A stretch of 64,000 nt of DNA, taken from NCBI GenBank assembly GCA_035532835.1, contig DATKQG010000096.1:62001-126000 (forward strand), read 5' to 3'. This document shows, piece after piece, positions 47,055 to 60,412 of the stretch; position 1 is the stretch's first letter, and each line of letters opens with the position of its first letter. The notes under the pieces are model-generated. The model had not been told where the DNA came from. It searched no databases and saw only the letters and a program-made list of their open reading frames with translations. This DNA comes from Candidatus Dormiibacterota bacterium. GTDB taxonomy: Bacteria; Vulcanimicrobiota; Vulcanimicrobiia; Vulcanimicrobiales; Vulcanimicrobiaceae. The position numbers and the translations under genes were made by a program.

Positions 47055-48404
47055 GTGGAGGAGTCGAGCAATACAACGCGCGAGTCTGCGGTTGTGGCAT
47101 CGCTACTACGCAGGCTCGGCACACTCGATCTGGCGTTGATTACGATCGGAGCCGTGATCGGCTCGGGAATCTTCCGAACGCCGTCGGTTGTCGCGCAGCG
47201 GGCACACATTCCCGCCCTAATCCTCGCCTGCTGGGCGTTGGGCGGAGTTGTAGCGGTAATCGGCGCCTTCGTCTTTGCGGAACTCGCCGCCCGGCGCCCG
47301 CTCAGCGGCGGGCTCTACGCGTACCTGCGCGACGCCTATAACCCCGGCGTCGCGTTTGTTTTTGGCTGGACGCTCCTCTTCATCGGCGACACCGGCGGCA
47401 CGGCCGCAGCCGCCGTCTTATTTGCCGGATACTTCGAGCCGTTAACCGGCTTGCACGTCGCGCCGACGATCGTCGCGGTCGTAACGCTCGCGCTCGTCAC
47501 GGCGATCAACGTTCTGGGCGTGCGGCAAGGAGGGACGTGGCAGAACGTCTTGGTCGTGCTGAAGATTGGCGCGATCGGAGGATTGATCGCGGCCGGTATC
47601 TTCGCGCATCCTAGCGCCGCGTCGGCAGCACCGGTCGCGTTCCATAGCGGCGGCACGCTGCTGGGTGCGCTCGGGGTAGCGATGCTGCCCGTGCTCTTTT
47701 CCTACAACGGCTTTCAAGGTGCGAGTTTCATTACGGGCGCGACGCGCGACCCCGAGCGCACCATTCCTCGCGGACTGGTTATCGGAGTCGGAACGATCGT
47801 CGTTATCTATCTGCTCGCGAATATCGGATATCTGCACGCGCTCGGTGCCGCCGGCCTGGCCCGCACGCACACGCCCGCCAGCGATGTGATGCAGGCCGCA
47901 ATCGGACCGGTAGGCGCGCGCGTTATCGCGGTCGCGATCACGCTTTCGACGCTCGGGTTCATGAGCACGCGTTTGCTTGTTGCCCCGCGCATCTATCATC
48001 AAATGGCGCAAGACGGGTTGTTTTTCAAAGCGGTCGGATGGATTAATCCGCGGACGCACGTTCCAACCGTCGCGATCGTGCTCGAAGGATTGGTTGCGGC
48101 GATCATCGCCGCCAGCGGGACGTTCGAACAAATCGTGAACTGGGTCGTCGCTCCCGAATGGGCCTTCGTTGTAATGGCCGCAGGCGCGGTGTTCGTCTTC
48201 CGGCGTCGCGATGCAGATAAACTGCCGCCGGCCACGCGCGTCCCCGGGCATCCATGGACGACCGGTTTGTTCATTATTACGCTGCTCGCAATTTTCGCGG
48301 CCGAATTGCTGACCTATCCGCGAGATACGCTCTACGGCGCTTTGGTGATGGGCGCGGGCGTTGTGTTCTTCTTTGTGTGGCGGCGCACTCGCGCCGTAAG
48401 GTAG
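47055..48404 (+). CDS. APC-superfamily amino-acid permease
   Basis: 449 residues from GTG 47055. Twelve membrane segments are expected. LALITIGAVIGSGIFRTPS is the conserved first segment with the substrate-backbone GSGIF motif, and ELAARRPLSGGLYAYLRDAY follows. The relatives are amino acid/polyamine antiporters; specificity is not predictable. From 47491 to the stop the DNA is repeated at 51821-52734, where the 5' third is missing. Its GC content matches the housekeeping genes. Confidence 0.88.
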   Translation: MEESSNTTRESAVVASLLRRLGTLDLALITIGAVIGSGIFRTPSVVAQRAHIPALILACWALGGVVAVIGAFVFAELAARRPLSGGLYAYLRDAYNPGVAFVFGWTLLFIGDTGGTAAAAVLFAGYFEPLTGLHVAPTIVAVVTLALVTAINVLGVRQGGTWQNVLVVLKIGAIGGLIAAGIFAHPSAASAAPVAFHSGGTLLGALGVAMLPVLFSYNGFQGASFITGATRDPERTIPRGLVIGVGTIVVIYLLANIGYLHALGAAGLARTHTPASDVMQAAIGPVGARVIAVAITLSTLGFMSTRLLVAPRIYHQMAQDGLFFKAVGWINPRTHVPTVAIVLEGLVAAIIAASGTFEQIVNWVVAPEWAFVVMAAGAVFVFRRRDADKLPPATRVPGHPWTTGLFIITLLAIFAAELLTYPRDTLYGALVMGAGVVFFFVWRRTRAVR

Positions 48405-48407
48405 CTT
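47491..48407 (+). repeat. 917-bp direct repeat, copy 1 (3' two thirds of the permease gene)
   Basis: Matches 51821-52737 without gaps (offset 4330). I counted about 20 differences in the first 250 bp and fewer later, and about 14 changed residues in roughly 300. The match stops 3 bp past the permease stop codon. It flanks a 3.4-kb segment with the BNR protein gene and could recombine to delete or amplify it. Confidence 0.9.
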
Positions 48408-48599
48408 GCCGGGCTCAGAACAACTGGCCATGCCGGAAGGCGCCGCCGGCGAGGGCGACCGGTCTGTACATGGTCAAAACATTGGCACAGCACATCGCGT
48501 TCGAATCGGATGCCCGGGGGCGGACCGCGATTGACCGTTACGATTTCGATTGCACGCCGCGCTGGTTAGAGACAGGATTCTCCGAATCGCGCGGTCATA

Positions 48600-51500
48600 A
48601 TGGTCGGGATGAAGCGCTTTCTTACCGGCGTTCTTGCCGTTATCGTGGTCGCTGCTCCGCTGGCCATTCGCGCCGCCGCAACAGCTCCGACCAAAGAGCA
48701 ATTGATCTCCAAGCTGTCGTGGCGCAGCATCGGTCCGGCGATCGGAGGACGCGTCGTCGCGGTCGCGGGCGTTCCAAATGAGCCCAACCTGTTCTACATG
48801 GGCGGCGTCGAAGGCGGCGTTTGGAAGAGCACCGATTACGGCCTGACGTGGGATAATATTACCGACGGCAAGATTCCGGGAATCGCTGATCCAATCGGCG
48901 CGCTCGCGGTGGCGCCTTCAAATGCGAAGGTCATCTACGCGGGCACCGGCGAGGCGGACATCCGCAGCGATTTCGACACGGGCGACGGTATCTACAAGAC
49001 GACCGACGCCGGTAAGACTTGGCACTACGCCGGGTTACGCAACACGCATATGACGACCAAACTGGTCGTCGACCCGCACAATCCCAACGTCGTGTACGCT
49101 GCGTCGATGGGCCACGTGTTCGTGCCCAACACCGACCGCGGCGTTTTCAAGACGACCGACGGCGGCAAGAGTTGGCACAAGATTCTGTACGTCGACGCGA
49201 AAACCGGCGGCGTGGACCTGGTGATGGACCCGCACAACGCGAACGTGTTGTACGCCGCGATGTGGCAGGCACAGCGCGTGCCGTGGAAGCTGACCAGCGG
49301 CGGCCCCGGCAGCGGCTTGTATAAAACGACCGACGCCGGTGCGCATTGGACCAAGATCTCGACCAATCCCGGATTCGCCAAAGACCTGCTCGGAAAGATC
49401 GGCGTGTCGGTCGCGGCGAGCAACCCGCGCATCGTGTACGCGATCGTGCAGGCCAAGGACGGCGGCGTGTTCCGCTCGCAGAACGGCGGGGCGACTTGGA
49501 AGCTGGTCAACAACGAGATGAAGCTGCGCCAGCGCGCCTTCTACTATACGGCGATTTTCGCCGACCCGACCAATGCGAACGTCGCGTACGCGCCGCAAGT
49601 CGACAGCGTCTACAAGACGACCGACGGCGGTAAGACGTGGAAAGTGATCCCCTCGATCCCGCATGGCGATCACCACATCATCTGGGTCAATCCGCTCCAT
49701 CCCAAGATCATGCTCGAGGGCAACGACGGCGGCGCGACGGTGTCGACGAACGGCGGCAAGACATGGAGCACCGTGTGGAATCAGAAGACCGGGCAATTCT
49801 ATAAAGTTGCGCTCGACGACCAGTTCCCGTTTCATGTCTACGGCGCGCAGCAGGACGAAGGGGCCTTCGAGGCCCCGAGCGCGATGCCGGGCGGCGCGAT
49901 TCCGCTTTCGGCATGGCAGTCGGTCGCGCTCGGCGAGAGCACGTGGGTCGCGCCCGAACCGGGTCATCCCGACGTGACGTACGGGGCGGGCTACAACAGC
50001 TCACTCGTGCGCCTGAACAATCACACCGGTGAAGAAAAGAACGTGAGCCCGTGGCCGCGCTACATGGCCGGCTCGCCCGCGGCAGAAACCAAGTACCGTT
50101 TCGGGTGGACGCACCCGATCTTTTTCTCTCCCGCCGATCCCAAAGAGTTGCTCGTCGGCTCGCAAGTCGTCTTCTCGAGTATGGATCAGGGACAGACGTG
50201 GAAGGTCATCAGCCCCGATCTCACTCGCAACGACAAGAGCACCGAGGGGCCGACCGGCGGTCCGATTTTCCTGGATCAAACCGGCGCGGAAACCTTCCCC
50301 GACGTCGCGTCGCTCGCGGTCTCGCCGCTCAACAAGGACGTGATCTGGGCCGGATCGGCCGACGGCCTGGTGCACGTGACGACCGATCACGGCGGCAGTT
50401 GGAAACTCGTCACGCCGCCTGCGCTTCCGCAATGGGCGCAGATCAGCTCGATCGAACCGTCGCACACCGCGGAGGGCACGGCATATCTGTCGGCATCGCG
50501 TTACATGTGGGACGATTTCCACCCGTACGTGTATAAGACGACCGACTACGGTGCGCACTGGACGACGATCTCGGCGAATCTGCCGAACGATCAATATGTG
50601 TTCGCCGTGCGCCAGGATCCGCGCGAGCCGCGCCTGCTCTTCGTGGGTACGCGCAGCACGGTCTACGCGAGCTTCGACGACGGCGGCCGCTGGACGCCGC
50701 TTACGCTCAATCTTCCCGGCGTGCAGGTTCGCGATCTCGCGATCGATGCGCGTGAGGGCGAACTGGTGGCGGCCACGCATGGCCGTTCGTTCTGGATTCT
50801 CGACAATCTGGCGCTGCTCGAACAGATTGCGCGCGGCGATCAGCCCGGCGCGGATGCCGCCTATCTCTACGCACCGGAGAACGCGTGGCTAACCCACGCG
50901 TACGGTGGCGGCGGATACGGAAGCAACGATCCGACCGCGGGCGCGAATCCCAAGTACGGAACGACGGTATTCTTCGACATACCCAAGGGTTATAACGGCC
51001 GCACGCCGGCGACGCTCACGTTCGAGGATGCGTCGGGCGCGACGATTCGCAATTTCACGCTGCATCTAGCGAACAAGCACGAGAAGAAGCTGACCAGAGC
51101 GCAGCGGGCGCTGATGGACAGCACGGCGTTGCGTGCGCACGACATCGCCGAAGCGACCGCAGTCAAGCCGGGAATGAATACGTTCCAGTGGGATATGAAG
51201 TACCCGCCGGCCTACGACGTTCCGGGATTCCGTAACGCCGAAACCGACGACTTCCCCGACGTCGGCGACGGACCGACGATTCTGCCCGGCAAATATCAGG
51301 TGACGCTGCACTACGGCGGCAAGTCGTACACGCAGCCGTTCACCGTGACGCTCGATCCGCGTCTGCATCCGGCCGACGGCGATCTGGAAGCGCGCTTTGC
51401 GCTGGAAACCAAGATCCACGATTCGATCGACCAACTCGATCGAGCGATCGACGCGGCGATGAACGCTCGTGCGGGACTGCCGGCAGCGCGTCGGGCCCAA

Positions 51501-51719
51501 GTCAACGCGGAGATCGCGGAACTGGTCATGCTTCGCATGAATTCGAGCGAAGCCGACGTGCTGTATGCCGACAAAATCCGCGCCCAGCTCGGCTTCTTGC
51601 TCAATTCACTCGAAAATGCGTATCAGAAGCCGACGGCGGCGGAGTACGCAACCTTCGATGACTTACGTAAGATCGCCACGATGGGTGAAGACCGGCTCAA
51701 GGCACTGACGGCGCGATAA
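48600..51719 (+). CDS. Secreted BNR/VPS10 (sortilin)-like repeat protein
   Basis: 1039 residues, with a signal peptide (KRFLTGVLAVIVVAAPLAIR); the start may be the ATG at 48609. At least nine BNR-like Asp-box repeats are seen (GVWKSTDYGLTW, GIYKTTDAGKTWHY, GVFKTTDGGKSW, VYKTTDGGKTW, ATVSTNGGKTW and others), forming one or two large propellers. A C-terminal beta-sandwich (FFDIPKGYNGRTPATLTFED and PILPGKYQVTLHYGG-like) and an alpha-helical tail follow. Such proteins are common in Acidobacteria-like and related genomes and are labelled glycosyl hydrolase or sortilin-like; no catalytic site is obvious. The stop codon lies in a hairpin loop. Confidence 0.85.
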   Translation: MVGMKRFLTGVLAVIVVAAPLAIRAAATAPTKEQLISKLSWRSIGPAIGGRVVAVAGVPNEPNLFYMGGVEGGVWKSTDYGLTWDNITDGKIPGIADPIGALAVAPSNAKVIYAGTGEADIRSDFDTGDGIYKTTDAGKTWHYAGLRNTHMTTKLVVDPHNPNVVYAASMGHVFVPNTDRGVFKTTDGGKSWHKILYVDAKTGGVDLVMDPHNANVLYAAMWQAQRVPWKLTSGGPGSGLYKTTDAGAHWTKISTNPGFAKDLLGKIGVSVAASNPRIVYAIVQAKDGGVFRSQNGGATWKLVNNEMKLRQRAFYYTAIFADPTNANVAYAPQVDSVYKTTDGGKTWKVIPSIPHGDHHIIWVNPLHPKIMLEGNDGGATVSTNGGKTWSTVWNQKTGQFYKVALDDQFPFHVYGAQQDEGAFEAPSAMPGGAIPLSAWQSVALGESTWVAPEPGHPDVTYGAGYNSSLVRLNNHTGEEKNVSPWPRYMAGSPAAETKYRFGWTHPIFFSPADPKELLVGSQVVFSSMDQGQTWKVISPDLTRNDKSTEGPTGGPIFLDQTGAETFPDVASLAVSPLNKDVIWAGSADGLVHVTTDHGGSWKLVTPPALPQWAQISSIEPSHTAEGTAYLSASRYMWDDFHPYVYKTTDYGAHWTTISANLPNDQYVFAVRQDPREPRLLFVGTRSTVYASFDDGGRWTPLTLNLPGVQVRDLAIDAREGELVAATHGRSFWILDNLALLEQIARGDQPGADAAYLYAPENAWLTHAYGGGGYGSNDPTAGANPKYGTTVFFDIPKGYNGRTPATLTFEDASGATIRNFTLHLANKHEKKLTRAQRALMDSTALRAHDIAEATAVKPGMNTFQWDMKYPPAYDVPGFRNAETDDFPDVGDGPTILPGKYQVTLHYGGKSYTQPFTVTLDPRLHPADGDLEARFALETKIHDSIDQLDRAIDAAMNARAGLPAARRAQVNAEIAELVMLRMNSSEADVLYADKIRAQLGFLLNSLENAYQKPTAAEYATFDDLRKIATMGEDRLKALTAR

Positions 51720-51737
51720 GCGGCGTCAGTGCCTTGA
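51697..51737 (+). terminator. Hairpin enclosing the stop codon of the BNR gene
   Basis: A perfect 14-bp stem (51697-51710 with 51724-51737) closes a 13-nt loop that contains the TAA stop at 51717-51719. There is no T-run. It may end transcription with Rho or protect the 3' end of the mRNA. Confidence 0.65.
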
Positions 51738-51820
51738 TACCTCGCCTTGACGACGTTCGGTCTCCATTGATTTGTCGCTGGACCGTCGGCTCAAGAACAG
51801 CCGGATAAAAGCTACCGCCG

Positions 51821-52734
51821 CGTTCGTCACGGCGATCAACGTTCTGGGCGTGCGGCAAGGGGGGACGTGGCAGAATGTATTGGTGGTGCTGAAGATCGGT
51901 GCCATCGGCGGGTTGATCGCGGCCGGTATCTTCGCGCATCCTAACGCCGCGTCGGCCGCACCGGTCGCGTTTCATAGCGGCGGCACGCTGCTGGGCGCGC
52001 TCGGGGTTGGGATGCTTCCCGTGCTCTTTTCCTACAACGGCTTTCAAGGCGCGAGTTTTATTACCGGCGAGACGCGCGACCCCGAGCGCACCATTCCTCG
52101 CGGGCTGGTTATCGGAGTCGGAACGATCGTCGTCATCTATCTGCTCGCGAATATCGGATATCTGCACGCGCTCGGTGCCGCCGGCCTGGCCGCCACGCAC
52201 ACGCCGGCCAGCGATGTGATGCAGGCCGCAATCGGACCGGTAGGCGCGCGCGTTATCGCGGTCGCGATCACGCTTTCGACCCTCGGGTTCATGAGCACGC
52301 GTTTGCTCGTTGCTCCGCGCATCTATCATCAAATGGCGCGAGACGGGTTGTTTTTCAAAGCCGTCGGATGGATTAATCCGCGGACGCACGTCCCAACCGT
52401 TGCGATCGTATTGGAAGGATTGGTTGCGGCGATCATCGCCGCAAGCGGGACGTTCGAACAAATCGTGAACTGGGTCGTCGCTCCCGAATGGGCCTTCGTG
52501 GTAATGGCCGCAGGCGCGGTGTTCGCCCTCCGGCGTCGCGACGCAGATAAATCGCCCCCGACCGCGCGCGTCCCCGGGCATCCATGGACGACTGGCCTGT
52601 TCATTCTCACGCTCCTCGCAATTTTCGCGGCCGAATTGCTGACCTATCCGCGGGATACGCTCTACGGCGCTTTGGTGATGGGAGCGGGCGTCGTGTTCTT
52701 CTTTCTGTGGCGACGCGCTCGCGCCGTAAGGTAG
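51821..52734 (+). pseudogene. 5'-truncated copy of the APC permease gene
   Basis: The reading frame is intact from TAINVLGVRQGG to the stop, but about 145 N-terminal residues are missing, including the first four membrane segments with the GSGIF substrate motif. A TTG at 51772 could start translation with a few unrelated residues, but transport activity is unlikely. Substitutions against the full copy are conservative, so the duplication is fairly recent or kept similar by gene conversion. Confidence 0.82.
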
Positions 52735-52737
52735 CTT
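51821..52737 (+). repeat. 917-bp direct repeat, copy 2
   Basis: Gap-free near copy of 47491-48407. Sequence upstream of 51821 has no resemblance to the start of the permease gene, so the duplication is truncated at its 5' end. Confidence 0.9.
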
Positions 52738-52899: not shown

Positions 52900-53919
52900 A
52901 TGGCACGTGCGGACTTGCTTCTGAATCTCGTTGACGCGGCGAATCGCAATGATACGCTTATGATCAAGCACGCCGTTGAGGCCATGGCAGCCGAAGAGCG
53001 CGCCAAGAACCATCACGTGCTAGCTGATCAACTCTCTGCGCGGATTGAGCGCGAAAAGTCGGCTCCAAATGTGCAGCGATTAGCAGCAGCGTTAATGACA
53101 GACCTCTGGTATGAGCGTTCGCCACGGATACGGATACAGGATCTGATCCTCGCATCCGATGTTTACTCGACCGTATCACAACTGGTTGAGGAACAGCATC
53201 GGACGGAGCTTCTTCGTTCGCATGGCCTGGAACCGCGCAATAGAATACTACTAAATGGGCCGCCTGGTAATGGAAAGACGACTCTTGCCGAAGCGATCGC
53301 GGAGTCTCTTGTTGTTCCGTTGATCGTTCCTCGATACGAGTCTATTGTCGGGAGTTTGCTCGGAGAAACCAGCCAGCGGCTAAGGCAACTTTTTGACTAC
53401 GTTGCTACCCGCCGTTGCGTGCTGTTCTTGGACGAATTCGATACGGTGGCGAAGGAGCGTGCTGACCAGCACGAGACGGGTGAGATAAAGCGCGTAGTAA
53501 GCTCGCTGCTGTTGCAGATCGATCAATTACCATCGCATGTGGTTGTCGTCGCGGCAACAAACCATCCGGAGCTATTGGACCGCGCCGTTTGGCGCCGATT
53601 TCAGGTTCGGCTTGCGATGCCCCCACCAATCGCCGCACAGGTGCGAGAGTGGTTCGCGCTGTTTACCCGGCGCTACGGTATCGATCTACAGAAGAGCGCT
53701 TCGGCGCTCGATGGAAAATTCGCCGGCCGCAGTTTTTCCGACCTTGAGGAGTTTGCGTTAGACGTGCTGCGTCAGATCGTCCTCGCCGGGCCCGACGGCG
53801 ACCTGCGCGCGATAATTAGCCAGCAGCTTAGGAGGCAGGTTGCTCAAACTCGGGCTGCGGCACAGCGGAGGCCCACTTTGAACCGCTCCAACAGCTTGGC
53901 GAAGAAAAAGAGGAAGTAG
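52900..53919 (+). CDS. AAA+ ATPase paired with a subtilase
   Basis: 339 residues from ATG 52900. A helical N-terminal part (1-95: ARADLLLNLVDAANRNDT, then HHVLADQLSARIERE) precedes a classical AAA domain: Walker A GPPGNGKTT at 120-128, Walker B CVLFLDEFD (Asp178-Glu179), sensor 1 VVAATNHPELL and an arginine-finger-like WRRFQ. The order resembles SpoVK/CDC48-type ATPases. It precedes the S8 protease gene by 13 bp on the same strand, so ATP-driven control or substrate delivery to the protease is likely. GC is lower than in the housekeeping genes and codons such as ATA, AGA and TTA are common. Confidence 0.85.
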   Translation: MARADLLLNLVDAANRNDTLMIKHAVEAMAAEERAKNHHVLADQLSARIEREKSAPNVQRLAAALMTDLWYERSPRIRIQDLILASDVYSTVSQLVEEQHRTELLRSHGLEPRNRILLNGPPGNGKTTLAEAIAESLVVPLIVPRYESIVGSLLGETSQRLRQLFDYVATRRCVLFLDEFDTVAKERADQHETGEIKRVVSSLLLQIDQLPSHVVVVAATNHPELLDRAVWRRFQVRLAMPPPIAAQVREWFALFTRRYGIDLQKSASALDGKFAGRSFSDLEEFALDVLRQIVLAGPDGDLRAIISQQLRRQVAQTRAAAQRRPTLNRSNSLAKKKRK

Positions 53920-53932
53920 GGTCAGATAATAT

Positions 53933-56527
53933 ATGGACGGTGAGGGTGCTGGCCAATATCCACTGATTGTTTTCCCGACGAGGCAGCGAGGCGCTAGTCA
54001 AGATAGATTTGGCCGTCCTCCGCGTCTCACGTTCCCGACTCATGGACGACAGATCGCTCGCGCGGAGCCTCAATTCAAGAACCTTCAAGATCGCTTCAAT
54101 GCGGCTTTGCAGGTTGCGCCTGATGGCGTCGAATCCGACCTCGTTCTCGTCATTGAGATAGCTGGGCGTGTTGTCGACTTCGTAAATGCCACGAGATACG
54201 TTGAGGGGCTCAAGTGGATAGGCGAATGGGATACAGAAGATATCGATCCGAGCCTAGACTTCGCGACCAGTAATGAAGGACAGCGGGTGGCAGGAACGCT
54301 CTTTTTGATGTTCTCGAATCAAAGCGCGATGCGCGAGCTGCTGTCACTTTGGGATCGTTACAAAGAGAATCCGGCGGCGCAATTCCGCCGCGGGCTGAAC
54401 AAATGGCGCGACGTGTTCAAGCAGCTTCATACCATCCGCCTTTGGGACGAGCAAGATCGTGTTACTGACGAGTTGGTAAAAGATTGGCGCCTGCGGCTTG
54501 AAGGCGGCTTGAACGTGGTCCCGTTCGAGGCCGAGCTTTGGTATTCGCAAAATGAGGACAAGAGACGAAAGGCTGAGGCAGAACTTAGGGCAGCGGTAGA
54601 AGATGCCGGCGGCCGTGTGGCCGGGCATTACGTCATCTCAGAAATAGATTATCAGGTAGCCGTCGGCGAGCTTCCGTCGGATGTAGTGCGCAATATGCAG
54701 GGCGACCGTGCGGCCTCGATATTTAAGAACCCGGGAGTGATGTATCTTCGCCCAGCGGCGCAGGCGCTTGTTTCATCGGACGAGGGAGACTTCATCCCGA
54801 CGGAAGATGCGGCGACGCGGCCGCTCCCTGATAATAGTAAAGAAGCTGTGGTCGCGATCCTGGACGGGCTGCCAGTAGGGAATCATCCTTTGCTCAGTGA
54901 TCGGCTAATCATCGATGACCCCGATGGGTGGGCGGCGACAGTTGCCGCATCCGATCGTGTTCACGGGACGGCGATGGCCTCTCTCGTCGTTCATGGCGAC
55001 TTGGGTGCGAGGGAGTCGCCGCTCACGCGGCCTGTCTATATACGCCCGATTCTGATGCCTGATCCAGCCGATTGGCGGAATGATCCGCGGGTCGAATGTG
55101 TCCCGGAAGGAGTACCGTTCGCTGATATTGTGCGGCGTTCCGTAGAACGGCTGTTTGACGAGTCATTACCGGGCGTCGGCAGGATATTCGTTATCAACTT
55201 ATCCGTCGGCGATCTGTCGCGAATGTTTTTAAGAAGTATCAGCCCGTGTGCGCGACTTTTGGATTGGCTTGCATGGAAGTATAAGGTTTTGTTCCTCGTT
55301 TCTGCTGGGAACCATGTTCAGGACGTTGATCTAGATATCACGCGCGATTCCCTTGCAATACTGCCGGCGCTCGATGTGGAGAGCCAACTCATTAGGGGAC
55401 TTGAGCGACAAACGCTTGATCGCCGACTTTTGAGCCCAGCAGAGGCAGTGAACGCTTTAACAGTTGGTTCTGCGCATCGAGATTCGTCTGAGCCGCTTCC
55501 ATTGGAACGACAGGTTTTGGCGTTTCAGGACGTGCTGCCGAGTCCATTCAATGCGCATGGGTTTGGTTATCGGAGGGCCATTAAGCCTGACGTCCTTTTC
55601 GACGGCGGTCGGATTCTCTTGGAAGAAGCAAACGTTCAGGAACCTGGTAGGACCAGAGTGCGGATGGTGAGGGCGCTAAGACCGCCAGGAAATCGCGTCG
55701 CAGCACCACCGCCGCGGGGCACCGGATTAGTGGCGTCGCGAGAGAGCCATATAAGGGGAACAAGCAATGCATGCGCGTTTGCCACCAGAAATGCTGCTTT
55801 TCTTTACGAGCTGCTGAGCAATCAACGCATGGTCGAAGGAAGTGTTCCGAATGGGTATATGGCAGTTGCATTAAAGACGCTGTCTGTTCATGGTGCAGAA
55901 TGGGGAACGCTGGGAGAGCGATACATAGAGGCCCTTGCGGCTGAGCCGAGCGTGCTCCCACCGTTTGTAAAGCAGCGAGAATATGTAGCGAAATACCTTG
56001 GTAATGGCATCGCTGACTTTAGCCGCTCCGTCCTTTGTAATTCGCGCCGCATTACACTGATTGGGTATGGGAGTCTTACCGATGGGGAGGCCGACGTTTA
56101 CACGTTTCCTTTGCCGCTAGCGCTTAGTGGTCGCAGAGGGATGCGAAAGCTCGTGGTCACGCTTTCCTGGCTGTCGCAAATGAATCCGCGACATAACAAT
56201 TATCGGCGAGCCCATCTATGGTTCAATTTCCCAGCGGAAGACGCGAAACCAGGATTGGCTGTATCGTCTGCGCGAGCCGAAGTTCATAATAGGCCAGCAC
56301 AACGCGGGACGCTGCAGCACGAGATTTTCGTTGGCGATGAGGCGAGAGTGCTCAAGCCCGAGTCGTCGATTCTCATTTCCGTTAACTGTAAGGCGGATGC
56401 CGGGAGCTTCGAAGATAAGGCGCCGTATTGCTTGGCCGTGACAATGGAGGTCGGCGAAGAGCTTGACCTGCCGATTTATCAGCAGGTTGCCGAGCGCGTT
56501 CGACAGGCCGTACAGGTACAACCCTAA
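53933..56527 (+). CDS. S8 family subtilisin-like serine protease of an ATPase-protease pair
   Basis: 864 residues, no signal peptide, so probably cytoplasmic. A long N-terminal region (1-300) has no recognised motif. The protease domain has Asp311 (AILDG), His344 (VHGTAMAS), the oxyanion Asn460 (VSAGNH) and Ser611 (RGTSNACAFATRN), so the triad is complete. A 150-residue stretch separates Asn and Ser. A C-terminal region (about 700-864) is beta-rich. ATPase-subtilase pairs occur sporadically in bacteria and I cannot name a characterised relative. GC is about half (28 of 60 in one block), below the neighbours. It ends 57 bases past a run of unusual codons and is followed by a gene-free stretch. 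Confidence 0.85.
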   Translation: MDGEGAGQYPLIVFPTRQRGASQDRFGRPPRLTFPTHGRQIARAEPQFKNLQDRFNAALQVAPDGVESDLVLVIEIAGRVVDFVNATRYVEGLKWIGEWDTEDIDPSLDFATSNEGQRVAGTLFLMFSNQSAMRELLSLWDRYKENPAAQFRRGLNKWRDVFKQLHTIRLWDEQDRVTDELVKDWRLRLEGGLNVVPFEAELWYSQNEDKRRKAEAELRAAVEDAGGRVAGHYVISEIDYQVAVGELPSDVVRNMQGDRAASIFKNPGVMYLRPAAQALVSSDEGDFIPTEDAATRPLPDNSKEAVVAILDGLPVGNHPLLSDRLIIDDPDGWAATVAASDRVHGTAMASLVVHGDLGARESPLTRPVYIRPILMPDPADWRNDPRVECVPEGVPFADIVRRSVERLFDESLPGVGRIFVINLSVGDLSRMFLRSISPCARLLDWLAWKYKVLFLVSAGNHVQDVDLDITRDSLAILPALDVESQLIRGLERQTLDRRLLSPAEAVNALTVGSAHRDSSEPLPLERQVLAFQDVLPSPFNAHGFGYRRAIKPDVLFDGGRILLEEANVQEPGRTRVRMVRALRPPGNRVAAPPPRGTGLVASRESHIRGTSNACAFATRNAAFLYELLSNQRMVEGSVPNGYMAVALKTLSVHGAEWGTLGERYIEALAAEPSVLPPFVKQREYVAKYLGNGIADFSRSVLCNSRRITLIGYGSLTDGEADVYTFPLPLALSGRRGMRKLVVTLSWLSQMNPRHNNYRRAHLWFNFPAEDAKPGLAVSSARAEVHNRPAQRGTLQHEIFVGDEARVLKPESSILISVNCKADAGSFEDKAPYCLAVTMEVGEELDLPIYQQVAERVRQAVQVQP

Positions 56528-56959
56528 TGCCTATGGCTGCTTTCCGGCGGACATTCTCAGGCCACGGGGAAGCCGCTCCTAATGCCCTGTAAGGACTTGG
56601 GAATTCCGCACACGGCTGAGGGCGGATTCGCGCAAAACGCCGGCACCGGCTGGCGATTTAGAGATCGCCGAAAGGCCGCGGCAAAGCGGAAAATGCTGGC
56701 GCCGGCAGCCCATTGATGGCTTGGGTACAAATCCGCAGGAGCTATTTGACTATTAGTGGTCCGTCTAACAGAGCGGACGAAATCGGGCGGGAACGGCCGG
56801 GGCAAAAAAGCGGAAATCCCTGAAAATCGAGGGTTTTAGTAACGCTCGGGACCTGCCGGGACCCCACTTCGAGAATTCAACTCATTTGCTGCTTGCAAAC
56901 GCGGCTCTAAGCAACTTCTTCGACCTTTCAATAACAAAGATGAACCGGCTCCGTTCAGA
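56528..56959. other. Gene-free stretch after the subtilase gene
   Basis: About 430 bp with no credible ORF. It holds several short hairpins: GGCGAT/ATCGCC near 56652-56669, and GTCCGTCT-AAC-AGA(G)CGGAC at 56759-56778, which could end the subtilase transcript. A CCCT/AGGG hairpin with a TTTT tail follows near 56818-56837. No transposase, integrase or tRNA is seen. It may be an old insertion scar or hold a small RNA. Confidence 0.4.
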
Positions 56960-57275
56960 ATTACACGGCAGCACACGCGCCGTGGGTGACTGCGATCGGA
57001 ATCGCCATGGTGACGGTATAGCCGCCGTCGGTCAGCGCGCCGCGCGACCCAGAGCGGCCCGAAGTTCGTGTTCTCCGACGACGCTTCGTTATGCGCCCGC
57101 ATCGGATTCGACTCGAACTGATATTGGAAGCCTGCCGGACTAGTCGCCAAATGTCGACCCGCACCGCGTTATCGGGCAACGCCATACCGCCGTTGATATT
57201 GTTGCCGCCGTATACTGTGTCGTCGGCGTGCCGTGCCGCACAGGCGCCGACTTCTTCGCGGTAGGCGTATGAAGT
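56960..57275 (-). pseudogene. Decayed fragment of a CBM9-type outer-membrane protein gene
   Basis: Read on the minus strand, two frames join into one protein-like segment. It runs GGNNINGGMALPDNAVRVDIW, shifts frame to ATSPAGFQYQFESNPMRAHN and EASSENTNFGPLW, and shifts back to ALTDGGYTVTMAIPIAV. The order matches the CBM9-like part of the intact neighbour, where RYQTSSENSAYSPEW is followed by NGYDVTMRIPLSII. At least two frameshifts break it, and the beta-barrel half is absent. It is a paralogue remnant just downstream of the intact gene (57278-59467). Confidence 0.72.
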
Positions 57276-59513: not shown

Positions 59514-60074
59514 TTAGCGCACGCTATCTATCCTGCGTCTGATGGTCTGATAAAAGCTGGCGCCGATGCACATCGCCGGGATGACTCCCAAAAGCCCAAT
59601 CCAGGCGCCAAGTGGTGCTTGAGAATCGGGGTTGCCTGCGAGCGCCGGAATAACGAAGCACAGAACCAGAAATAGCGCTGCACTAAACGCTACGCGCAGA
59701 CCGTCGGTCCGAACGAGTCGCGCAAGGATCGCGCCGAAAACAACTGCAGCAGTCCAGTTGACGCAAAACCATCCGAATCCAGTCTGGACTACCGTATCGA
59801 TCAGCACGACCACAAAGAACATCTCGAGTAGTACAGCGAGCGCAAGTAGTGCGACGCCAATGCGGCGAAGCGCCGACTCGTTCGATCTGGAATACGAGAG
59901 AAGCGACGGTATTGAAAGCACCGTTTGCGTCCAATACCAGCGATTTGCAGCCTTCGCCCCGCTCAAATACATGATGCGAAGGTATTCCTCATGCAGATCA
60001 CCAGCAACAATCTCGTAATCGCATTCAGGAGCGGCGGCTACGACAAGCGCTTGAGCGAGGGTAGGTGGCCTCAC
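59514..60074 (-). CDS. Membrane protein with permease-prefix-like N-terminus
   Basis: 186 residues. The N-terminal 55 residues (YEIVAGDLHEEYLRIMYLSG, then ANRWYWTQTVL) resemble the short prefix domain seen before MacB/FtsX-type permeases in Acidobacteria. Four hydrophobic segments follow (about 70-92, 100-118, 127-145, 152-172) but no permease domain. The start overlaps the PadR gene stop (4 bp), so the pair is cotranscribed, as PadR genes often are with their membrane target. It may sense or modulate another transporter; function is unknown. Confidence 0.6.
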   Translation of the reverse strand: MRPPTLAQALVVAAAPECDYEIVAGDLHEEYLRIMYLSGAKAANRWYWTQTVLSIPSLLSYSRSNESALRRIGVALLALAVLLEMFFVVVLIDTVVQTGFGWFCVNWTAAVVFGAILARLVRTDGLRVAFSAALFLVLCFVIPALAGNPDSQAPLGAWIGLLGVIPAMCIGASFYQTIRRRIDSVR

Positions 60075-60412
60075 GCGGTTGCGTCCCGTAGCGACACACC
60101 CGCATGAAGTCGTTCCAGGGTGTGTCGGGCATTTTTGAGTGCCGAAACGCCGTCAGCCTCGATCTTGAAGTGCCGTTTGGCTTTGCCGCCGCGCTCAGCG
60201 GTCGGCTCGCCGATCCAAGACGAGACCAGTCGCTTCCGTTCGAGACGCTCGAGTGTCGCGTGGACCGCGCCGATCGCGGGAGAACGTCCCGTAACACGCT
60301 CGATTTCAGCGCGAATCATCGCCCCATACGCACCGTCGCCCAAACGGAGGACGGTCAGCAGAACGACGTGCTCGAACTCGCCGAGATACTCACCTTTCGC
60401 CATAATATCCAC
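60071..60412 (-). CDS. PadR family transcriptional regulator
   Basis: 113 residues, a winged helix of PadR type: FEHVVLLTVLRLGDGAYGAM, AIGAVHATLERLERKRLVSS and the wing GEPTAERGGKAKRHFKIEA. The start may be ATG 60412 or ATG 60403; the second gives the more usual MAKGEYLGEFEH. PadR proteins are repressors that respond to small molecules and often regulate their own operon with a membrane partner, here the adjacent 186-residue protein. Three ATAATA-type copies overlap the start region. Confidence 0.85.
   Translation of the reverse strand: MDIMAKGEYLGEFEHVVLLTVLRLGDGAYGAMIRAEIERVTGRSPAIGAVHATLERLERKRLVSSWIGEPTAERGGKAKRHFKIEADGVSALKNARHTLERLHAGVSLRDATA

What the first reader, a model, noticed from the sequence alone, without database searches (positions are those of the whole stretch)
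52900..56527. Two-gene AAA+ ATPase/S8 subtilase module of foreign composition
A cytoplasmic-looking subtilase with complete Asp311/His344/Asn460/Ser611 follows an ATPase with intact Walker motifs by 13 bp. GC is about half versus about 62% in the housekeeping block sampled, and the pair lies among a truncated duplication and a pseudogene. It fits the pattern of mobile conflict or defence systems, with ATP hydrolysis gating proteolysis. I cannot link it to a named system.
Basis: partly seen in the sequence, partly recalled or inferred. Interest (0 to 1): 0.8.

Follow-up and report, generated by a model that had tools for sequence, protein, structure and literature searches.

The report
IetAS ATPase-protease phage-defence gene pair
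The two genes are an intact, divergent copy of the already described IetAS system, in which an ATPase keeps a subtilisin-like protease in check and the pair protects bacteria against phages and stabilises mobile DNA; the copy itself is ordinary, but the searches also found phages that carry the ATPase half alone, which may be a counter-weapon.

Summary
Two intact genes, 52900-53919 (AAA+ ATPase) and 53933-56527 (S8 subtilase), lie 13 bp apart with complete catalytic motifs. The pair does have a name. PADLOC scores it as IetA (E 4.7e-136) and IetS (8.2e-272) over full length. It is a distant subtype: NCBIfam's narrower IteA/IteS equivalog models match well below their cut-offs. In the phylum (149 genomes) only three carry this subtype and 12 carry any IetA, so it is not universal. 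Relatives lie on plasmids and viral contigs, and the nearest same-phylum relative sits between pglW and pglX of a Pgl/BREX type 2 locus. Most likely IetA restrains the IetS toxin and infection releases it (shown for relatives as toxin-antitoxin; inferred here). A side finding is more interesting: six viral contigs carry a solitary IetA of this subtype, with no S8 protease anywhere on the contig, arising more than once (AU p = 1e-8 against one origin). This suggests repeated phage capture of the antitoxin as counter-defence, which is untested.

The parts
52900..53919 (+). ietA: AAA+ ATPase, 339 aa from ATG, regulator/antitoxin half of IetAS
   Evidence: PADLOC PDLC04232 4.7e-136; Pfam AAA; start fixed by the conserved MARADLLLNLV
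52900..53094 (+). IetA N-terminal segment MARADLLLNLV... (residues 1-65), kept in IetA paired with this IetS subtype and lost in four of the six solitary phage IetA
   Evidence: alignments
53257..53280 (+). Walker A GPPGNGKT (IetA 120-127)
   Evidence: invariant in 13 aligned IetA
53419..53436 (+). Walker B VLFLDE (IetA 174-179)
   Evidence: D178, E179 invariant
53593..53598 (+). Arg-Arg pair R232/R233, probable arginine finger
   Evidence: invariant; role inferred from AAA+ ATPases such as p97
53933..56527 (+). ietS: S8 subtilase, 864 aa, toxin/effector half of IetAS
   Evidence: PADLOC PDLC04233 8.2e-272 over residues 9-863; Pfam Peptidase_S8
54515..54760 (+). predicted beta-alpha-beta-beta-alpha-beta domain (IetS about 195-276) just before the protease, subtilase-propeptide-like
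   Evidence: AlphaFold2 model pLDDT 81, pTM 0.87; best fold match is Tk-SP with its propeptide, 3afg; assignment inferred
54839..55852 (+). S8 protease domain (IetS about 303-640) with D311, H344, N460, S611
56030..56455 (+). C-terminal beta-rich domain (IetS about 700-841)
   Evidence: predicted structure
51818..52737 (+). left neighbour: 5'-truncated duplicate of the permease gene 47055-48404; not part of the system
   Evidence: 94% identity to 47488-48406
56976..57239 (-). right neighbour: remnant of a broken gene; not part of the system
   Evidence: 74-75% DNA identity to sequence in G033 and G057

Best explanation
The pair is an IetAS system, as defined by PADLOC, of a divergent subtype, probably acquired laterally and standing alone at this locus in a Candidatus Eremiobacterota genome. 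IetA is a p97-type AAA+ ATPase that holds the cytoplasmic subtilase IetS inactive. When a phage (or loss of the genes) upsets IetA, IetS is released and cleaves essential proteins, so that the cell stops growing or dies before phage release. Shown here: identity of both proteins, intact catalytic residues, gene order, patchy distribution, mobile and defence neighbourhoods of relatives. Shown by others for relatives: the IetS-like protease SgiT is toxic and the IetA-like ATPase SgiA neutralises it. Inferred for this pair: restraint by IetA, the phage trigger, and the cleaved targets.
For: PADLOC IetA 4.7e-136 and IetS 8.2e-272, full length. D311/H344/N460/S611 and the Walker motifs are invariant in 13 pairs from several phyla. 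An ATP-binding gene lies directly upstream of the S8 gene in all 14 annotated plasmid loci read; in one, the Klebsiella plasmid, the S8 gene is broken into pieces. 85 plasmid records carry relatives, beside partition, mobilisation, Tn7-like or toxin-antitoxin genes. The same-phylum genome G148 has PglW-IetA-IetS-PglX and PglZ-BrxHI; G140 has PglW next to IetA and G137 has IetAS next to PglX/PglZ homologues. The sgiAT relative is a toxin-antitoxin pair in E. coli with the protease as toxin (PMC5006074). IetAS relates to phage resistance of strains, mechanism unknown (PMC11878078).
Against: NCBIfam's anti-phage IteA/IteS equivalog models are matched far below cut-off (229 of 510 bits; 58 of 900), so function is carried over from distant relatives. 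No other defence system and no integrase was seen near the window's pair (RmuC-like and TAP-like PADLOC hits are generic). The IetS tree neither joins nor separates the window and its two same-phylum relatives (p-AU 0.318), so lateral transfer rests on patchiness and composition.
Confidence: 0.75

Rival explanations
1. The pair is chiefly an addiction module that stabilises the DNA that carries it (plasmid, island), not an anti-phage system; in this chromosome it is a relic of such an element.
For: IetAS was first described on the Agrobacterium plasmid pTiC58 as a toxin-antitoxin system, and SgiAT stabilises SGI1 (PMC5006074). 85 plasmid records carry relatives, several beside ParA/ParB, relaxase or RelE/ParE genes.
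Against: Relatives sit inside Pgl/BREX type 2 loci and the family is in the defence libraries. No plasmid or island backbone was found around the window's pair. The two roles can coexist.
Confidence: 0.3
2. A housekeeping AAA+ protease for protein quality control (FtsH- or ClpXP-like), in which IetA unfolds substrates and feeds them to IetS.
For: IetA is close to p97/Cdc48 and Rix7 in solved structures and to proteasome-activating ATPases in NCBIfam.
Against: Patchy: 3 of 149 phylum genomes carry the subtype, and G000 has an FtsH-type match besides (G000:C80). Foreign composition. In a relative the protease is toxic without the ATPase (PMC5006074).
Confidence: 0.06
3. A secreted or surface subtilase for nutrition with an unrelated ATPase next to it.
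For: Subtilases are often secreted.
Against: No signal-like hydrophobic N-terminus (sequence); the ATPase is the usual upstream partner in relatives; IetS-specific N- and C-terminal regions match PADLOC IetS over 855 positions.
Confidence: 0.01

Closest known systems
IetAS (PADLOC IetA/IetS; DefenseFinder Gao_Iet)
   Same: Gene order, AAA+ and S8 domains, full-length profile matches to PDLC04232 (451 bits) and PDLC04233 (902 bits), catalytic residues
   Different: Different subtype from the PADLOC IetS models PDLC02197-02202 (75 bits or less) and from NCBIfam's anti-phage equivalogs IteA/IteS (below cut-off)
SgiAT of Salmonella Genomic Island 1 and IetAS of pTiC58
   Same: Same two-gene architecture, AAA ATPase antitoxin and subtilisin-like toxin (PMC5006074)
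   Different: Those sit on mobile elements; this one is on a chromosome-like contig without a visible element. Their sequences were not compared directly here
Relatives on actinobacterial, Paracoccus and Shewanella plasmids
   Same: 48-55% identity in IetA, 32-35% in IetS, same order
   Different: Plasmid-borne; different host phyla
Tk-SP, PCSK9 and MycP subtilases
   Same: Predicted propeptide-like domain, S8 domain and C-terminal beta domain; best fold match 3afg, E 1.3e-16
   Different: No sequence match in the PDB; those are secreted, IetS looks cytoplasmic and has an ATPase partner

Membership tests
IetAS (as in PADLOC) | Two-gene unit, AAA+ ATPase upstream of S8 subtilase | tested here: met
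   13 bp apart, same strand; same order in relatives
IetAS (as in PADLOC) | Full-length match to IetA and IetS profiles | tested here: met
   4.7e-136 over 1-324 of 330; 8.2e-272 over 4-851 of 855
IetAS (as in PADLOC) | Intact Walker A/B and Asp-His-Asn-Ser | tested here: met
   invariant in 13 aligned pairs
IetAS (as in PADLOC) | Protease toxic, ATPase neutralises it | not testable with these tools
   shown for SgiAT only (PMC5006074)
IetAS (as in PADLOC) | Protects against phages | not testable with these tools
   literature on relatives only (PMC11878078)
IetAS (as in PADLOC) | Associated with mobile elements or defence genes | tested here: inconclusive
   yes for relatives; none seen beside the window's own pair
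NCBIfam IteA/IteS anti-phage equivalogs (NF042959, NF042956) | Score over the curated cut-off | tested here: not met
   228.9 of 510 and 58.2 of 900 bits; not filed under these narrow models
FtsH / Clp-type housekeeping AAA+ protease | Near-universal in the phylum | tested here: not met
   12 of 149 genomes have any IetA (188 bits or more); the other matches listed score 125 bits or less, in open frames mostly of 500-860 aa, as expected of FtsH and kin
Pgl/BREX type 2 | PglW, PglX, PglY, PglZ beside the pair | tested here: not met
   none beside the window's pair; present beside relatives in G148 and in part G140, G137

The most novel reading that the evidence does not exclude
Phages have repeatedly captured the ATPase half of IetAS alone and use it as a counter-defence: a solitary phage IetA binds and restrains the host's IetS, or replaces the host IetA that the phage has upset, and so blocks the suicide response. 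Six viral contigs carry such an IetA of the window's own subtype among phage genes with no S8 protease on the contig, from more than one origin; two further contigs show IetA followed by a broken IetS, as expected of intermediates.
Probability: 0.35. Interest if true: 0.72.

Novelty: new member of a known kind. Interest (0 to 1): 0.36.

Why it matters
The pair itself extends IetAS, whose mechanism is still called unknown in the literature read, to a poorly studied soil phylum and gives a natural divergent test case. Two by-products matter more. Solitary phage IetA make a direct experiment possible: does antitoxin alone switch off IetAS immunity? And IetAS beside Pgl/BREX type 2 genes in up to three genomes of this phylum suggests that a protease module can be built into BREX, which the 2026 survey of BREX diversity does not mention in its main text under subtilisin, subtilase or S8 peptidase (PMC12839542).

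Tried and rejected
A single-copy housekeeping role: rejected by distribution. A visible integrative element around the pair: no tRNA, no RNA family, no inverted repeats at its ends; a 104-bp stretch at 56775-56878 recurs in two relatives at 82-85% but no tRNA or attachment site was recognised there. An empty-site comparison with the congener G056 failed because its contigs end at the permease repeat. Phylogenetic proof of transfer: the test did not decide (p-AU 0.318). Structure with 3 sequences was useless (pLDDT 41.6); with 19 it was good. The first scan of viral contigs with a narrow alignment found nothing; a broader one did. The scan of genome contigs reached only the two loci already held. 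Rhodobacter phage AAA-ATPases (27% identity) were not counted among the six solitary IetA, their kinship being uncertain. One solitary IetA (L138) was first read in a wrong frame and corrected before the tree. The pTiC58 and Salmonella copies were not fetched; profiles were used instead.

Full report
Observation. The window holds two intact same-strand genes, ietA at 52900-53919 (339 aa from ATG) and ietS at 53933-56527 (864 aa), 13 bp apart. Most relatives begin with a form of MARADLLLNLV, which fixes the ATG at 52900. Composition is foreign but less extreme than stated: GC 0.555 against 0.628, GC3 0.56-0.61 against 0.66-0.83, and codon-usage distance 0.24 against 0.08-0.21. The genes at 59514-60412 are equally atypical, so the odd region may be wider than the pair.

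Identity. PADLOC names the proteins IetA (E 4.7e-136) and IetS (E 8.2e-272), both over full length. Pfam sees AAA and Peptidase_S8. NCBIfam's equivalogs for the anti-phage IteA/IteS match at 229 of 510 and 58 of 900 bits. So the pair is IetAS in PADLOC's sense, in a subtype far from the one on which NCBIfam's models are cut; I do not file it under those narrow models.

Distribution. The genome has one copy. In the 149 genomes of the phylum, an IetS of this subtype is in three (G000, G138, G148), and any IetA (188 bits or more, clear of the next matches at 125 bits or less, which look like FtsH and its kin) is in twelve. The one congener held, G056 (93% complete), lacks it. The contig of G138 has a twin in the record titled Candidatus Eremiobacterota, which places the window in that phylum. 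Relatives lie on 85 plasmid records. In the 14 annotated plasmid loci read, an ATP-binding gene always lies directly upstream of the S8 gene; in the Klebsiella plasmid the S8 gene is in pieces. In the IetS tree the window sits on a long branch in a well-supported set of 14 rows that mixes phyla, plasmids and viral contigs; holding the three same-phylum rows together is not rejected (p-AU 0.318). Lateral spread thus rests on patchiness, composition and mobile carriers, not on that test.

Surroundings. To the left is a 5'-truncated copy (51818-52737) of the permease gene 47055-48404 (94% identity). To the right are a decayed gene remnant and then a block whose nearest relatives are in other genera (83-84% identity in G033), not in the congener. 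No integrase, tRNA or second defence system was seen near the pair; the RmuC-like and TAP-like PADLOC hits are generic. The congener's contigs end at the permease repeat, so the empty site could not be shown.

Defence context of relatives. In G148 the nearest same-phylum relative lies in the order PglW, IetA, IetS, PglX, and further on PglZ and BrxHI, on one strand. This is a Pgl/BREX type 2-like locus with IetAS between pglW and pglX. In G140 a PglW homologue (40%) ends about 6 bp before the open frame of an IetA whose remainder is lost to another sequence; in G137 an IetAS of another subtype has PglX and PglZ homologues on either side. In G067 an IetAS of another subtype is followed by the start of a DruE-like helicase. 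Neighbours of viral-contig copies include GajA-like, OLD-like, type II methyltransferase and type IV restriction matches, though this was not tested against a background.

Structure and mechanism. AlphaFold2 on 19 sequences gave a good model of IetS (pLDDT 81, pTM 0.87). Its best solved match is Tk-SP with its propeptide (3afg, E 1.3e-16), then PCSK9 and mycosin MycP1. The segment before the protease reads beta-alpha-beta-beta-alpha-beta, as subtilase propeptides do; so IetS probably carries its own prodomain, and a C-terminal beta domain. That is inference from a model. IetA is close to p97 and Rix7, with Walker B and Arg-Arg residues kept, so ATP hydrolysis in a ring is likely. For the relative SgiAT, the protease is toxic and the ATPase neutralises it in E. 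coli (PMC5006074). In Pseudomonas, IetAS goes with phage resistance and its mechanism is called unknown (PMC11878078); a review table lists ietAS among systems escaped or triggered through phage proteins (PMC10286901). I therefore take the most likely mechanism to be restraint of IetS by IetA, relieved on infection, with cleavage of essential proteins and abortive infection. Only the components are shown for this pair.

Side finding: solitary IetA in phages. A scan of viral contigs for IetA gave 103 loci, of which the best 80 were kept. Among those with 300 bits or more, most have IetS directly downstream. Six do not, with 9.9 kb of sequence after the gene: L118, L121, L124, L127, L138, L140. 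No IetS and no Peptidase_S8 match exists anywhere in their whole records (20-68 kb), while the two paired controls ring. The records are not known to be complete, so a missing part cannot be excluded. PADLOC scores them as IetA of the window's subtype, 342-507 bits, against 451 for the window itself. Neighbours that were scanned are phage genes: RecE-like exonuclease, MazG, endolysin, terminase, portal, RusA. L118 and L121 are full length; the other four lack the N-terminal segment. A further, all-solitary and more distant set (within L144-L153, except the paired L146) scores 154-210 bits with the session's own profile. On the tree, the solitary ones need at least two changes forced by supported branches (five in the best tree), and one single clade is rejected (p-AU 1e-8). 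L118 falls with the paired L116 and L120 (100/99). L115 and L122 have IetA followed by a broken IetS, as if in transition. The simplest reading is repeated loss of the toxin half with retention of the antitoxin half by phages, which would suit counter-defence; other uses, such as a replication ATPase, are not excluded. The few papers found on IetAS do not describe it as far as searched, which is weak evidence of novelty.

Verdict. The pair is an ordinary, intact, divergent IetAS. The interest lies in the by-products.

Noticed in passing
L118:9983-10975, L121:10001-10972, L124:9992-10783, L127:9836-10855, L138:5363-6595, L140:568-1362: Solitary IetA of the window's subtype among phage genes, with no S8 protease anywhere on the contig; more than one origin. 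Possible antitoxin mimic or counter-defence.
   Followed up: partly
L115:8100-9619, L122:1574-2956: Viral contigs with intact IetA followed by a short, broken IetS: possible intermediates between the pair and solitary IetA.
   Followed up: partly
L012:6593-18316 and L193:6503-11981 (G148): IetAS embedded between pglW and pglX of a Pgl/BREX type 2-like locus, with PglZ and BrxHI further on.
   Followed up: yes
L214:1-3327 (G140); L216:3269-19001 (G137): Two further phylum genomes with Pgl homologues next to IetA/IetAS, one of another IetS subtype and with PglX interrupted.
   Followed up: partly
L144-L153 (except L146): A distant family of solitary IetA-like ATPases in viral contigs, with a Walker A motif but changed residues elsewhere.
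   Followed up: partly
window 56775-56878: A 104-bp non-coding stretch that recurs at 82-85% in two relatives (L072:6194-6299, L073:139-244); nature unknown, no tRNA found.
   Followed up: partly
window 47488-48406 and 51818-52737: Near-identical permease pieces flank a sortilin/BNR-repeat gene; the congener's contig covers almost exactly the stretch between them (48408-51732, 98%), so the repeat probably exists there too.
   Followed up: partly
window 59514-60412: Two small genes with codon usage as atypical as the pair (0.23-0.26), with relatives in other genera but not seen in the congener.
   Followed up: no
L089:1-3938 (G067): IetAS of another subtype followed by the start of a DruE-like helicase (1.6e-52) in a same-family genome.
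   Followed up: no
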